From Halobacteriales archaeon QS_9_68_42 (GTDB taxonomy: Archaea > Halobacteriota > Halobacteria > Halobacteriales > Haloarculaceae): a stretch of 9,125 bases of DNA. This document shows positions 3,728 to 7,258 of this stretch, piece after piece. The position numbers were made by a program, and so were the translations under genes. Location: NCBI GenBank assembly GCA_003022905.1, contig PXSE01000096.1:1-9125 (forward strand). Reading direction: 5' to 3'. Position 1 is the first letter of the stretch. Each line of letters starts with the position of its first letter. Below the pieces are notes generated by a model, which did no database searches, was not told the DNA's origin, and worked only from the letters and a program-made list of their open reading frames with translations.

Positions 3728-3859
3728 ATGACGCCTCGGAGGGGACGGAGCGGGCGGCCTCCCGGCGGTCGGTGCTCGGTGCGGTCGGCGTCTGGGTCGC
3801 GCTGGGGTCGTTACCGGCCGCCGACGCGAGCGGCGGGAACGCGAGCAACGTCGGGACGG
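3728..3859 (+). pseudogene. Tat signal-peptide fragment fused to a decayed gene
   Basis: From 3730 one frame reads with strong haloarchaeal codon bias (GC at nearly every third position). It encodes an acidic start (DDASEGTERAA), a twin-arginine motif SRRSVLGAVG, a hydrophobic stretch (VWVALGSLPA) and a Ser/Gly/Asn-rich linker (ASGGNASNVG). This is the layout of a haloarchaeal Tat signal peptide. No start codon is available in that frame. An ATG at 3728 would give MT.SEGTERAASRR if one C were restored after ATGACGCC, so the start appears lost to a one-base deletion. The frame then runs into thioesterase sequence near 3855-3868, which does not belong to an exported protein. I infer the 5' end of a secreted-protein gene joined by deletion to another gene. 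The original protein, perhaps a binding protein or halocyanin, cannot be named. Confidence 0.5.
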
Positions 3860-4230
3860 ATGCCGCGGTCCGCCGTCTTTTACGGCAACTACGTCACCTT
3901 CCAGGACGAGGCGTTCACCGCCTTCCTGGAGGCCGTCGGCCACTCCTACGAGAAGTTACGGGACGCCGAGTAGGAGTCCACGTCGTCCATGTCGACCTCG
4001 ACTACTGCAAGCCCGCGACGTTCCCCAACCGGCTACACAGCACCATCCGGGTCTCGGCAATCCGGGAGTCCAGCGTCGCATTCAAGTACGAATGCCGCGG
4101 CGAGGCGGCGATCTCGTCGCCGAGGGCGGTCTGGTCTACGTCGCCGTCGACGAGTTTGGCGAGCCGACCCGCGTCCCCGACGAGTTCCGGGAGGCCGTCG
4201 TTTCAATCCGAGCCACCGGACCCCGTGTAG
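3850..4230 (+). pseudogene. Frameshifted acyl-CoA thioesterase (hotdog fold, YbgC/4HBT-like)
   Basis: Consecutive pieces in different frames join into one hotdog thioesterase of the 4-hydroxybenzoyl-CoA thioesterase/YbgC type, which hydrolyses acyl-CoA in the cytoplasm. GTDAA (about 3853-3867) leads into AVFYGNYVTFQDEAF and FLEAVGHSYEKLRDAE in the next frame, ending at a TAG at 3971. VGVHVVHVDLDYCKPATF and SAIRESSVAFKYECRGE follow in the first frame. GGDLVAEGGLVYVAVDEFG and TRVPDEFREAVVS follow in the third. A last shift near 4200 would give FQSEPPDPV and a stop at 4228. These blocks match the family order (TDAxGxxFxGNY, central YxxPAxF strand, ..VAEG..VYV, VPDExR). Three frame changes are clear (about 3865, 3971, 4100) and a fourth is likely, so the gene is dead unless the assembly is very poor. 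Its N-terminus is missing. Confidence 0.75.
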
Positions 4231-4267: not shown

Positions 4268-4657
4268 ATGCCGACGACCGCCGAGGTCGTAGACCGCTTG
4301 GACCGGCGCCTAATGAGCCTCGGAGTTTACGTCGAGCGCCACGCCATCGAGGCGGACGAGGACGGCCGACGGCTCCACGTCGAGTACGAGACGGCCGCCG
4401 GCGGCCTCGCCAGCAGCGATATCGGCAACGTCTGTACGGAACTCATCGAGGCCTACGAGGACGGCTGGGAGCCGCTGGACTGCCGCTTCTGGGCGTTTGC
4501 CACCGACGGCGCCGGCGACCTGCTCGGCGAGTGGGAGGTCCACGCCGGCTGGTTTCACGCCCTCGAGTGCGGCGACATCTCCGAGACTGACTTCTCGACG
4601 CTCGTGCTGTCGACCCGCCGCCCGGCCGACGAGAAGCCGCCGCCCCCGGAGGGGTAG
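4268..4657 (+). CDS. Acidic haloarchaeal protein of unknown function, 129 aa
   Basis: I do not recognise a characterised family. The product is soluble and acidic, with no signal peptide or membrane segment. It starts with a helix-like MPTTAEVVDRLDRRLMSLG, continues with a hydrophilic mixed region (HVEYETAAGG), and has an aromatic-rich core: CTELIEAYEDGWEP, DCRFWAFATDG, LGEWEVHAGWFHALECGDIS. It ends in a disordered Pro/Glu/Lys tail (PADEKPPPPEG). The pattern looks like a conserved single-domain haloarchaeal protein. The same frame stays open upstream to 3989, but coding character begins only at the ATG at 4268, which has a T-rich promoter element about 26 bases before it. Upstream lies the thioesterase remnant; downstream lies the hairpin-rich mobile element at 4707. 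Codon bias supports a real gene; no function can be assigned. Confidence 0.75.
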   Translation: MPTTAEVVDRLDRRLMSLGVYVERHAIEADEDGRRLHVEYETAAGGLASSDIGNVCTELIEAYEDGWEPLDCRFWAFATDGAGDLLGEWEVHAGWFHALECGDISETDFSTLVLSTRRPADEKPPPPEG

Positions 4658-4706
4658 CCGCCTGTTCGGTGGCCGAGGAGCGACTACAGGGGGAGTAGCG
4701 AGAGAG

Positions 4707-4725
4707 CCCACCCCTTCGGGGTGGG
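4707..4725 (+). repeat. Left-end hairpin of the element
   Basis: CCCACCCC-TTC-GGGGTGGG is a perfect 8-bp stem with a 3-base loop. It is the likely left-end recognition palindrome, similar to the right-end hairpin. Confidence 0.65.
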
Positions 4726-4927
4726 GTAAATCGCGTGCGCTCGGTACCCCAACCGCAGGATTTAGGCCGCTCGGGGTCGTATGTAGCAGTAACTCAATCG
4801 CCGAAACCAATCCGGAAACACTGGGGTCCTTCCCGCCGATACGCACCGCATGGTGCTCACAGTACCCCTGCCCCTGCAACACGGGATGGGGTGACGGCAT
4901 GACCAATTCAACCCCGTCGGCGTGCGA

Positions 4928-5010
4928 GCCTGTCCACCGTGGTCGTTCGAAAATCTCCGATTTTCGTGATGACGAGAATCTTTGATTCTCGAACCACAGA
5001 AAGGACAGGC
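4928..5010 (+). ncRNA. Nested multi-hairpin structure inside the element (structured RNA or ssDNA candidate)
   Basis: Four stems nest within 83 bases. The outer stem is GCCTGTCC (4928-4935) with GGACAGGC (5003-5010), 8 bp and perfect. The middle stem is GTGGT (4939-4943) with ACCAC (4993-4997). Inside are two perfect 8-bp hairpins: CGAAAATC-TCC-GATTTTCG (4948-4966) and CGAGAATC-TTT-GATTCTCG (4973-4991). Only TGATGA separates these two. Paired AT-rich hairpins with this spacer look familiar from other haloarchaeal genomes, but I cannot verify that here. Whether it acts as RNA or as single-stranded transposition DNA is unknown. Confidence 0.4.
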
Positions 5011-5031
5011 AGGCCGATGGCACGGCCCGTG

Positions 5032-5084
5032 CGCCCCCGGCCGCGAACGGCGGGGGCGAGCCCGACCACGCCGCGTGGTCGGGC
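5032..5084 (+). repeat. Two adjacent strong GC hairpins
   Basis: CGCCCCCG (5032-5039) pairs with CGGGGGCG (5051-5058), enclosing CCG-CGAA-CGG. Next to it GCCCGACCACG (5060-5070) pairs perfectly with CGTGGTCGGGC (5074-5084) over 11 bp, with a CCG loop. They are part of the hairpin-dense right half of the element. Confidence 0.6.
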
Positions 5085-5183
5085 GCTGTGCAAGGAGATA
5101 CCGCGTCCCTGTCGGGACACGCAACACGCCACACCCCTCGCGGGGCTCACGTACCGAGCACGAACCGGAGTACGCCCACGCGG

Positions 5184-5199
5184 CGGAAGCTTGCTTCCG
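5184..5199 (+). repeat. Short hairpin CGGAAGC-TT-GCTTCCG
   Basis: A perfect 7-bp palindrome with a 2-base centre in the right part of the element. A weaker 6-bp stem (5218-5223 with 5233-5238) follows, continuing the series of stems toward the right end. Confidence 0.5.
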
Positions 5200-5268
5200 T
5201 CGGACGGGCGAGACCCACGCACCGTTTTGCCGGGTGCGATGGCCGGCCCGACCCCGAACGCGGGGAAC

Positions 5269-5288
5269 CCCACGACTTCAGTTGTGGG
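5269..5288 (+). repeat. Right-end hairpin of the element
   Basis: CCCACGAC-TTCA-GTTGTGGG forms an 8-bp stem with one G:T pair. GAGAATGTCA follows. From memory this resembles the right-end palindrome and tail of haloarchaeal IS200/IS605-family elements, where cleavage occurs just 3' of the tail. Confidence 0.65.
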
Positions 5289-5294
5289 AGAATG

Positions 5295-5549
5295 TCAGAG
5301 CACCCGCAGTCGGTAGCCCTCGAGGGCATCCTCGTCGGTGACCCGTTCGGCCTCGGCGGCGGCATCGAGCAGTTCGGCGACGAACTCCTCGGGCACCTCG
5401 ACGCCGATGAAGTCGGTGCCCTCCCGGGCCGTGGTCAGTCGCGCCATCGTGCGGTCGGTGCCGTCGTCGTTGTAGATGCTCCCGACGCGCTCGTCGTCCC
5501 GGCGGAACCGGAGGGTCACGTCCGTCGGCTCTATCGCGTCGAACGTCAC
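5295..5549 (-). CDS. Small acidic haloarchaeal protein, probably 5'-truncated by a frameshift
   Basis: I recognise no named family. From a GTG at 5549 the frame encodes 84 soluble acidic residues: a beta-rich start (TFDAIEPTDVTLRFRRDD), a GSIYNDDGTDRTMARL block, then EGTDFIGVEVPEEFVAELLDA and a helical tail to EGYRLRVL. The codon pattern is clearly coding. The GTG is doubtful. Coding sense continues upstream (KFEV) with no ATG in this frame, and another frame starting at ATG 5602 encodes METTVAEHDGRMLAR with a well-placed TATA box. Restoring one A in CGAAG near 5560 fuses the two into an approximately 101-residue protein (...MLAR-K-FEVTFDA...). So it is either a frameshifted gene or a sequence error; an 18-residue leader coupled through a GTGA overlap is an alternative. 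Its TGA lies at the right tip of the mobile element. Confidence 0.6.
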   Translation of the reverse strand: MTFDAIEPTDVTLRFRRDDERVGSIYNDDGTDRTMARLTTAREGTDFIGVEVPEEFVAELLDAAAEAERVTDEDALEGYRLRVL

Positions 5550-6152: not shown

Positions 6153-6608
6153 TGGGCCGCCGACCCGGGTTCCGGCGCCGTGATTAGTTACGCAAGAGCC
6201 AGCCGGTCAGCCGACGTCGGGCGGGACCTCGAACGGGGCCGACCGCTCGCGCAGCGAGGCCGAGCGAGCGGAGCGAGGGAGGCCTCGGAAAGAAGCGAGC
6301 GGGAGGAGCGACGCGGGGAGCGACGACACGGGAGCACAGCGAGCCGACGCAAGCACGGCCATCGGCCGCGCGCCGCGAAGTCGAGCGAGCGCAACGAGAG
6401 AGGCCTCGAAAAGAAGCGAGCGGGCGGAGCGATGTGGGGAGCGACGACACGAGAGCGCAGCGAGGGAAGGCCTCGTGAAGAAGCGAGCGGGAGGGGGCGT
6501 TCGGAAACTCTACTATCACCAGCGAACTATGCTACTCCCTCATAGGTAAACACTACCGGTTCCGGGCCCGAAAGAGTCAAACGCGCCGCTCCCCTGCCAT
6601 TGGATGGC
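6153..6608. other. Gene-free stretch with direct repeats
   Basis: Both strands stay open through much of this stretch only because it is purine-biased GC repeat (GAGCGAGCG-type) lacking stop codons; the translations are low-complexity Arg/Glu/Ser. It holds the repeats at 6259-6494 and a weak C-terminal-like remnant on the minus strand (stop at 6207-6209, reading RERSAPFEVPPDVG). From about 6505 to 6560 a less GC-rich stretch includes a CTATG/CATAG inverted repeat (6527-6531 with 6541-6545), possibly promoter DNA for the next gene. I see no RNA gene. Confidence 0.55.
6259..6494 (+). repeat. Long direct repeats, period 121 then 67
   Basis: The 83 bases at 6261-6343 recur at 6382-6464 with nine differences by my count (about 89% identity). 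A core starting GGCCTCG recurs a third time at 6469-6491 (two differences in 23 bases), truncated. The unit contains GGCCTCG, AAGAAGCGAGCGGG, GGAGCGACGACACG and many GCGAG steps. Low-complexity GAGCGAGC sequence is common between haloarchaeal genes, but the conserved unit order indicates duplication rather than simple slippage. Confidence 0.75.
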
Positions 6609-7258
6609 ATGGACGTTCGCGTGACGGGACGTGGGCCCGCTGAACCGTTTCTGAGCGCCCGTGACCTGCTGGCGACCGAGCGTGACCTCGAGTTGCCGGT
6701 CGTCGTGAAGTTCCGCGAGGACCCCGACGACCGGACCGTGGCGGGCCACTACGACGACCGCCACGAACTGCTCGTCTCCCGGCGGGCGGCCAGTTCGGCG
6801 ATGGCGCGGGAACTCGCGCTCCATGAGTTCGCACACATGGCCCGCTACGAGGAGGAGCATCCCTCCCACGTGCAGTCGACCGAGGAGGCGCTGTTTCTCG
6901 CCCTGGCGGGCCGCAGCGTCGAACAACGGAAACTGGCCCACTGCTACCAGATCGCCAACCACGTAAAGGACATCTACGCCGACGACATCACGCTGGAAAT
7001 CGGGCCGACCCGGAAACTGGTGTCGTTCCTGGAGTCGTCGCTCGCGAGTGCGGTGGCGGACTCGCCGCCCGCGGCCCCGGGCGGGTGGCAGCGACTGTCG
7101 CCGACGCCGCGGCCGCCGACGCGCCGGAGGTGTCGGTGTCGGCGTTCAGGCGCCGCTTCCGGTCGCTCGGCGCCGACCCCGACGCCTCCGAGTACCGGAA
7201 GACCCTCGTTGACCTGACCCGCGAGTACGTCCCCGAGAACCGCCGGGCCGCGGACTGA
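6609..7258 (+). pseudogene. HExxH metallopeptidase-like haloarchaeal protein, frameshifted near the 3' end
   Basis: From ATG 6609 the first ~160 residues read cleanly: MDVRVTGRGPAEPFLSARD, an acidic stretch, then LALHEFAHMARYEEEH. H72-E-F-A-H76 fits the zinc-binding, catalytic HExxH motif, and E92/E93 in QSTEEALFLALAG could be the third ligand. HCYQIANHVKDIYADDI follows at 111-127. From memory it resembles haloarchaeal DUF5781, with no established substrate. Coding sense is lost near 7080, and that frame runs on to a stop at 7217. From 7082 a second frame encodes 58 well-coded residues (SVSAFRRRFRSLGADPDASEYR, LVDLTREYVPENRRAAD) ending at 7258. Both frames look coding across 7082-7110, so an out-of-frame internal deletion is as likely as a one-base indel. 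A TTG at 6600 would add three residues; ATG 6609 fits better. The gene converges on the sugar dehydrogenase gene. Confidence 0.65.

What the first reader, a model, noticed from the sequence alone, without database searches (positions are those of the whole stretch)
4707..5294. Hairpin-dense gene-free block, probably a non-autonomous IS200/IS605-derived element
About 590 bases without a gene are framed by two related stem-loops (shared CCCAC/GTGGG outer stem, TTC-starting loops), and the right one carries a GAGAATGTCA tail as in haloarchaeal IS200/IS605 right ends. Neither tnpA nor tnpB can be read. This fits a PATE/MITE mobilised in trans, whose internal sequence must be maintained for some other reason than coding.
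Basis: partly seen in the sequence, partly recalled or inferred. Interest (0 to 1): 0.7.

Follow-up and report, generated by a model that had tools for sequence, protein, structure and literature searches.

The report
Gene-free jumping element in haloarchaeon
The block is a protein-less jumping DNA element of the IS200/IS605 kind with exact borders, a conserved structured segment that looks like a stand-alone guide RNA, and a tiny 54-base double-hairpin element nested inside it.

Summary
Window 4688-5298 (611 bp, slightly wider than reported) is a non-autonomous IS200/IS605-type element (a "PATE"). Related copies lie dispersed in other haloarchaeal genomes with unrelated flanks. For 8 of 9 copies tested, a sister genome has the precise empty site: insertion 3' of CTAC (TTAC in two empty sites), right end TCAT (once TCAC), no target duplication. 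The window's copy apparently landed at the stop codon of a conserved 84-aa gene.

Two further findings. (1) The right half (5010-5298) sits where tnpB elements with the same ends seem to carry their omegaRNA, begins with the same hairpin, and holds a tnpB-less core with compensatory base changes, matched in 37 of 391 genomes of the class. I infer a stand-alone guide RNA that borrows TnpB, moved by TnpA in trans; nothing was assayed. (2) Window 4943-4996 is a separate 54-bp double hairpin, inserted between G and C at several kinds of site, including inside tnpA and tnpB. Its model matches 341 of 391 genomes. It resembles bacterial REPINs; nested pairs have the size of Haloquadratum SMR-A elements.

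The parts
4684..4687 (+). retained target CTAC (proposed TAM) directly 5' of the element
   Evidence: of 8 recovered empty sites of relatives 6 read CTAC and 2 TTAC at the junction; CTAC precedes the homologous left end in the window
4688..5298 (+). complete non-autonomous IS200/IS605-type element (PATE), 611 bp
   Evidence: limits of homology among dispersed copies with unrelated flanks; precise empty sites for 8 of 9 related copies
4707..4725 (+). left subterminal hairpin, CCCACCCC TTC GGGGTGGG
   Evidence: sequence; differs in sequence between copies but is a palindrome there too (by eye; some copies carry extra hairpins here)
4928..4935 (+). 5' arm (GCCTGTCC) of the host palindrome that holds the small unit; 3' arm GGACAGGC is 5003-5010
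   Evidence: paired in filled and empty copies
4943..4996 (+). nested 54-bp double-hairpin unit (two inverted hairpins)
   Evidence: absent at the same site from L093, L094, L098, L100, L105, L136; exact 54-bp difference to L093 and L094, 55 to L098; model R2 match 83 bits
5006..5033 (+). remnant of tnpB C-terminal codons (RPMARPV), forming hairpin GCACGGCCCGTGC
   Evidence: DNA match to tnpB genes, 96% over these 28 bases in the best cases; start of raised synonymous conservation in 13 tnpB ORFs
5010..5298 (+). proposed stand-alone omegaRNA-like segment: scaffold plus right end
   Evidence: same start hairpin and right end as tnpB elements; fold of 5006-5318 z -4.3
5015..5166 (+). conserved tnpB-less structured core (model R1)
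   Evidence: 25 sequences, 27 pairs, 9 with compensatory changes; 37 of 391 genomes
5269..5288 (+). right subterminal hairpin, CCCACGAC TTCA GTTGTGGG
   Evidence: sequence; a hairpin at this place in relatives by eye
5295..5298 (+). right-end tetranucleotide TCAG; its TCA is also the stop codon of the minus-strand neighbour
   Evidence: at the 8 empty-site junctions 7 relatives end in TCAT and L099 in TCAC; sequence
5299..5318 (+). proposed guide (flank 3' of the right end)
   Evidence: inference from TnpB systems (recalled); not tested
5295..5549 (-). conserved 84-aa neighbour gene at whose stop codon the element apparently inserted
   Evidence: 9 of 22 genomes match: 7 over nearly the whole length, G005 and G282 in part; G006 (L148) has GACTAC directly followed by AACACCC at its stop, without element

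Best explanation
Window 4688-5298 is a non-autonomous IS200/IS605-type element. A TnpA supplied in trans excises it as a single strand at its subterminal hairpins and pastes it 3' of CTAC/TTAC. Its right half (5010-5298) is a stand-alone omegaRNA-type guide RNA without its tnpB: scaffold, right end, then the flank as guide. A TnpB made elsewhere uses it to cut copies of the site that lack the element, with CTAC as TAM, so that the element is copied back. Shown here: borders, target and lack of duplication (on relatives), lack of a transposase gene, compensatory changes in the core, and the same position as the presumed omegaRNA region of tnpB elements with similar ends. Inferred: TnpA in trans, transcription, use by TnpB, TAM and guide.
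For: Dispersed copies with unrelated flanks end at the same points. 8 of 9 copies have a precise empty site, CTAC or TTAC, no duplication. Full-length tnpB-only elements with similar left and right ends lie in G004 (L223, L224). In 13 tnpB ORFs synonymous codon identity rises from 0.50-0.84 upstream to 0.91-0.96 from RPMARPV on, as expected for an RNA overlapping the 3' end. The mini-element carries that same hairpin and right end. The core has 97.3% paired cells against 90.4% in shuffles and 24-51% in slid controls; 9 of 27 pairs show compensatory changes. Of 30 loci fetched with the core model, 27 hold a recognisable core and in 26 of these the right end lies 158-256 nt downstream; 4 of the 30 have a TnpB match, none overlapping that stretch.
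Against: No expression or protein data. The middle of the core (about 5034-5148) was not found in the tnpB elements examined: on 63 tnp and plasmid loci model R1 gave 8 matches, L238 (apparently a mini-element, the same place as L106), L222 (a tnpB with another 54-nt unit) and six weak ones of 17-23 bits. So it is not simply that family's omegaRNA, and binding by its TnpB is uncertain. G008 holds copies but no TnpA match (draft genome). The window's own genome is not held, so TnpA and TnpB in this cell are unknown. The first of the four raised segments is biased, because most of these ORFs were fetched through that motif. The consensus structure was derived from the same alignment on which it was counted.
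Confidence: 0.62

Rival explanations
1. It is a plain PATE: ends recognised by TnpA in trans. The internal hairpins are only left-over and passenger DNA, and the conserved core helps single-strand DNA folding during transposition instead of acting as an RNA guide.
For: Hairpins matter for single-strand transposition (recalled). Both strands fold better than shuffles. The PATE class is described as transposase-free with near-terminal palindromes (PMC3119063, passages). The left half also holds conserved sequence that is not omegaRNA-like.
Against: In 26 of 27 loci with a recognisable core the right end lies 158-256 nt downstream of it. The core begins with the hairpin at which raised synonymous conservation starts in tnpB ORFs. 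Subterminal hairpins alone would suffice for TnpA (recalled).
Confidence: 0.3
2. It is an inert fossil: a decayed tnpB element kept only by chance.
For: Only a short tnpB remnant remains. In the window the right end reads GAGAATG instead of the commoner GAGGATG.
Against: Matches in 7 contigs of G004, precise empty sites in a sister genome for 8 of 9 copies, compensatory changes.
Confidence: 0.05
3. The block is a host non-coding RNA gene or an intergenic regulatory region, not a mobile element.
For: Strong conserved folding.
Against: Flanks of the copies are unrelated, and the empty sites rejoin the flanks. Rfam has 0 matches at gathering threshold over the whole window.
Confidence: 0.02

Closest known systems
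PATEs of Haloquadratum walsbyi (Dyall-Smith 2011, PMC3119063; passages seen)
   Same: No transposase gene, near-terminal palindromes like IS605-type elements, no target duplication, precise insertions. One described PATE (HqIRS71) also keeps part of a tnpB C-terminal region.
   Different: Here a structured core with compensatory changes is shared by elements in 37 of 391 genomes, in an omegaRNA-like position. The passages seen do not mention a guide RNA; its supplementary tables could not be read.
IS200/IS605 elements such as IS608 and ISDra2 (recalled)
   Same: Insertion 3' of a short fixed target, subterminal hairpins, no duplication. IS608 is recalled with target TTAC and right end TCAA; here CTAC/TTAC and TCAT, TCAC or TCAG.
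   Different: No tnpA and no tnpB in the element.
OmegaRNA / reRNA of TnpB elements (recalled; the archaeal paper PMC12558985 was only searched for six terms, none found)
   Same: Spans the tnpB 3' end to the right end; flank would serve as guide.
   Different: tnpB is absent and the middle of the RNA differs. Protein-less elements carrying omegaRNA may already be described in Geobacillus (Meers 2023, uncertain recall, not seen here).
SMR-A small mobile repeats of Haloquadratum (PMC3119063, passages)
   Same: For the nested unit: no duplication, preference for palindromes of PATE and IS605-type DNA. Three nested pairs are 108-112 bp, SMR-A about 110 bp.
   Different: Single units are 54-60 bp. 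Sequences of SMR-A were not available for comparison.
REP doublets / REPINs / BIMEs and Rickettsia palindromic elements (PMC3733652, PMC3116915, PMC6006769; passages)
   Same: For the nested unit: two inverted short hairpins with an outer GTCG or GTGG tag, dispersed, sometimes inside coding regions in frame.
   Different: The tag is not the GTAG or CGTC of those families. In PMC3733652 and PMC3116915 the words for archaea occurred only in reference titles. No dedicated transposase is known here.

Membership tests
PATE | too short to code for a transposase | tested here: met
   611 bp; no TnpB match by tblastn, only a sub-threshold RPMARPV match by profile, no Pfam family in 9 overlapping ORFs
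PATE | near-terminal palindromes related to IS605-type elements, no terminal inverted repeats | tested here: met
   hairpins at 4707-4725 and 5269-5288; similar ends in tnpB elements L223 and L224; the terminal bases AGGGGG and TCAG are not inverted copies (by eye)
PATE | no target duplication | tested here: met
   8 of 8 recovered empty sites of relatives (9 tested, 1 not found)
IS200/IS605-type transposition | fixed short target retained 5' of the element | tested here: met
   CTAC at 6 and TTAC at 2 of 8 empty sites
IS200/IS605-type transposition | a TnpA able to move it | tested here: inconclusive
   Y1_Tnp found in 4 of 7 related draft genomes, not in G008 or G339, which have copies, nor in G006; own genome not held
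omegaRNA | positioned from the tnpB 3' end to the right end, with RNA-level conservation | tested here: met
   same start hairpin and right end as tnpB elements, raised synonymous conservation there, covariation in the mini-element core
omegaRNA | sequence or structure match to the omegaRNA of a known TnpB family over its length | tested here: inconclusive
   only the first hairpin and the 3' part match; the middle differs
omegaRNA | transcribed, bound by TnpB, directs cutting | not testable with these tools
   needs RNA and biochemistry
REPIN/BIME (nested unit 4943-4996) | two short hairpins in inverted orientation | tested here: met
   99.9% of 750 cells paired in 36 distinct units; covariation 0.222 against 0.066 in shuffles. 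Much of the first hairpin was fixed by the search pattern; hairpin 2 and pair 30-56 were free on at least one side
REPIN/BIME (nested unit 4943-4996) | GTAG or CGTC tag | tested here: not met
   tag is GTCG or GTGG; so it is not filed as a member of those families
REPIN/BIME (nested unit 4943-4996) | associated RAYT/TnpA_REP transposase | not tested
   PMC6006769 passage: in archaea only subclass 1.1 (IS200-type) TnpA was observed
SMR-A (nested unit) | about 110 bp with prominent inverted repeats | tested here: inconclusive
   six single units 54-60 bp, three nested pairs 108-112 bp; no SMR-A sequence to compare

The most novel reading that the evidence does not exclude
Haloarchaea carry their own class of REPIN-like mobile doublets: 54-bp double hairpins that insert between G and C, without duplication, into palindromes of IS200/IS605 DNA and in the reading frame of tnpA and tnpB, and that can nest in one another. 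Host mini-elements of this kind are also free-standing guide-RNA genes that parasitise TnpB. Single-strand hairpin parasites would thus be stacked three deep: IS, PATE, doublet.
Probability: 0.45. Interest if true: 0.75.

Novelty: new variant of a known kind. Interest (0 to 1): 0.55.

Why it matters
PATEs are usually seen as shells without genes. A conserved tnpB-less guide-RNA-like core would explain why their inside is kept, and would make TnpB a shared resource exploited by protein-less parasites; both points can be tested directly. The 54-bp doublets would extend REPIN-like biology to archaea and may be related to the small mobile repeats (SMR-A) that target PATEs in Haloquadratum, whose mobilisation the authors call enigmatic.

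Tried and rejected
Rejected: the block as a protein gene; as an Rfam RNA (0 matches at gathering threshold); as a phage-borne element (one 38-base hit to the right end among phage records; 0 exact matches of the 54-bp unit's pattern in viral contigs).

My first idea that the 54-bp unit is a three-way junction closed by an outer stem was rejected: pair 3-56 fails in 25 of 36 distinct sequences. Two hairpins, each with its own lower stem, fit better.

Led nowhere: synteny of the left flank. The ORF at 4268-4657 had no tblastn match among 9 loci and no Pfam family, so the window's own empty site rests on the right flank and six bases of the left one (L148).

Literature: six searches were answered. 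By title and start of abstract, none of the papers they listed deals with REPINs in haloarchaea or with tnpB-less omegaRNA in archaea. Most subscription papers, including (as recalled) Meers 2023, are not held.

Not done: a control of model R2 on high-GC genomes that are not haloarchaeal; the only control was 50 kb of E. coli.

Full report
WHAT IS THERE. The window is haloarchaeal: the 24 plasmid records that match the block are from haloarchaeal genera, and the 52 genome stretches with the pattern of its small unit carry titles of haloarchaea or of halophilic or uncultured archaea. One phage record from a human sample matches 38 bases of the right end. The window's own genome is not held. The reported hairpins, the right tail and the lack of a gene are confirmed.

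IT IS A MOBILE ELEMENT. A search of 16 haloarchaeal genomes with the block found long matches in several: 7 contigs of G004, and others in G008, G010 and G016 (many further hits there are only the small unit described below). In 391 genomes of the class, 14 match at E up to 1e-20 (two candidates scored per genome). An alignment of the window with 14 copies shows homology starting near CTAY...AGCGAGAGAG and stopping at GAGGATGTCA, with unrelated flanks. Some copies are incomplete or carry extra hairpins near the left end (L091, L094, L096, L097, L099) or the right end (L091, L096, L107). Joined flanks of 9 copies (6 from G004, 3 from G008) were searched in 7 genomes. For 8 of 9 the sister genome has the uninterrupted site, reading CTAC (6) or TTAC (2) at the junction, without duplication; L101 was not found. 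L100's empty site is the least similar (83%). By analogy the window element runs from 4688 to 5298. Next to the same 84-aa gene, G006 (L148) has GACTAC directly followed by AACACCC and no element. This suggests that the window's element landed in the neighbour's stop codon (CTAC is the complement of GTAG) and that its end TCAG supplies the present stop. This inference rests on the right flank and six bases of the left; in G004 and G008 the same gene ends in another stop and has no element beside it (L146, L147).

RELATION TO tnpB ELEMENTS. Full-length tnpB elements with similar left and right ends lie in G004 (L223, L224); by BLAST the left end of L224 is weak (E 0.02 to 0.96), but both show the AGCGAGAGAGT(T/C)C left motif and GGAGGATGTCAT. 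The mini-element shares with tnpB genes a 28-base stretch encoding RPMARPV and part of the 3' end. In 13 tnpB ORFs synonymous codon identity is 0.50-0.84 in 30 ten-codon segments upstream and 0.91-0.96 in the four segments from RPMARPV on. That is what an RNA overlapping the gene's end would cause. The first of these four segments is biased, because most of the ORFs were fetched through this motif; some of the 13 are close relatives.

THE CONSERVED CORE. An alignment of 25 cores (window 5015-5166 and relatives) gives 27 pairs, 9 with changes on both sides. 97.3% of cells are paired against 90.4% in shuffles and at most 51.3% in slid controls; the covariation score is 0.285 against 0.171, reached by 0 of 500 shuffles; the count of further pair types does not exceed the shuffles (25 against 25.3). 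The structure was derived from the same alignment, so the slid control leans towards it. Model R1 matches 37 of 391 genomes of the class at E up to 1e-6 (8 candidates scored per genome). Of the 30 loci fetched there, 27 hold a recognisable core. In 26 of these the right end follows 158-256 nt downstream. Four of the 30 loci have a TnpB match, none overlapping that stretch. A search of 63 tnp and plasmid loci with R1 gave 8 matches: L238 (apparently a mini-element), L222 (a tnpB holding a different 54-nt unit), and six of 17-23 bits. So the core is, as far as tested, a feature of tnpB-less elements.

MECHANISM. I take TnpA in trans for movement and a TnpB in trans that uses the core as guide scaffold; the flank at 5299 onward would be the guide and CTAC the TAM. 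All of this beyond the borders, the target and the covariation is inference. What is said of TAM, guide and IS608 is recalled.

THE NESTED UNIT. Window 4943-4996 is 54 bp: two inverted hairpins. The pattern scan gave 53 distinct units. Filled and empty sites differ by exactly 54 bp in the PATE (against L093 and L094; 55 against L098), in a right-end palindrome (L023 against L024), in tnpB after RPMARPV (L222 against L223, a unit of other sequence), and near the tnpB C-terminus (L021, L027, L031, L034, L057 against L001). In these the unit begins TC, ends CA and lies between G and C; at the tnpB C-terminus the bases beside the junction also differ slightly, so the exact point is less sure there. 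In tnpA (L004, L018, L043; empty form not found) the unit begins TC, ends GA and also lies between G and C. The unit adds 18 codons: the frame is open in tnpA of L004 (annotated as a transposase) and in tnpB of L021, L027 and L031, but holds an in-frame stop in tnpA of L018 and L043 and in tnpB of L034 and L057. So 4 of 8 such genes are open through it. Of 15 element copies resolved at the PATE site, 6 are empty, 6 have one unit (54-60 bp) and 3 have a nested pair (108-112 bp). 19 of 53 units lie in or within 400 bp of tnpA/tnpB matches, against 10.5% of random positions in the same loci. Counting recurrent end palindromes, which were defined from the same data and so have no control, 38 of 53 lie in IS605-like DNA; for 15 I saw no such link. 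Model R2 matches 341 of 391 genomes at E up to 1e-3 (at most 14 candidates scored per genome). In a 50-kb stretch of E. coli the best match had E 0.69. E-values of this model are rough and no high-GC control was run.

WHAT IT RESEMBLES. PATEs and SMR-A elements are described in PMC3119063 (passages); REP and REPIN families in PMC3733652, PMC3116915 and PMC6006769 (passages). I file the block as a PATE. I do not file the 54-bp unit as a REP family member, because its tag is neither GTAG nor CGTC, and SMR-A sequences could not be compared.

Noticed in passing
L097, L099, L102 (element copies in G004 and G016): A second pair of hairpins of different sequence sits inside the linker of the first 54-bp unit, giving 108-112 bp inserts, the size quoted for SMR-A elements.
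   Followed up: partly
L222 889-944 (-): A tnpB gene carries a different 54-nt double hairpin in frame directly after its RPMARPV codons.
   Followed up: partly
L004 998-1450 (-); L018 4598 (+); L043 1555 (-): The 54-bp unit lies inside tnpA just before the HUH motif; open in L004, with an in-frame stop in L018 and L043.
   Followed up: partly
window 6600-7258 (+): A DUF5781 gene appears split by a frameshift: profile positions 1-169 and 198-242 lie in two frames.
   Followed up: no
window 6248-6494: Repeated purine-rich GAGCGAGCGG-type sequence: a 96-nt repeat (two copies, 88%) plus a 30-nt repeat in three copies.
   Followed up: no
window 3750-4230 (+): Looks like a broken gene for an exported protein (twin-arginine-like start RRSVLGAVGVWVALG, then frame changes), read by eye.
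   Followed up: no
L006 2990-3310 and L005 2678-3054: Distant gene-free stretches on Haladaptatus and Natronosalvus plasmids share pieces of the left half or the right end of the block.
   Followed up: partly
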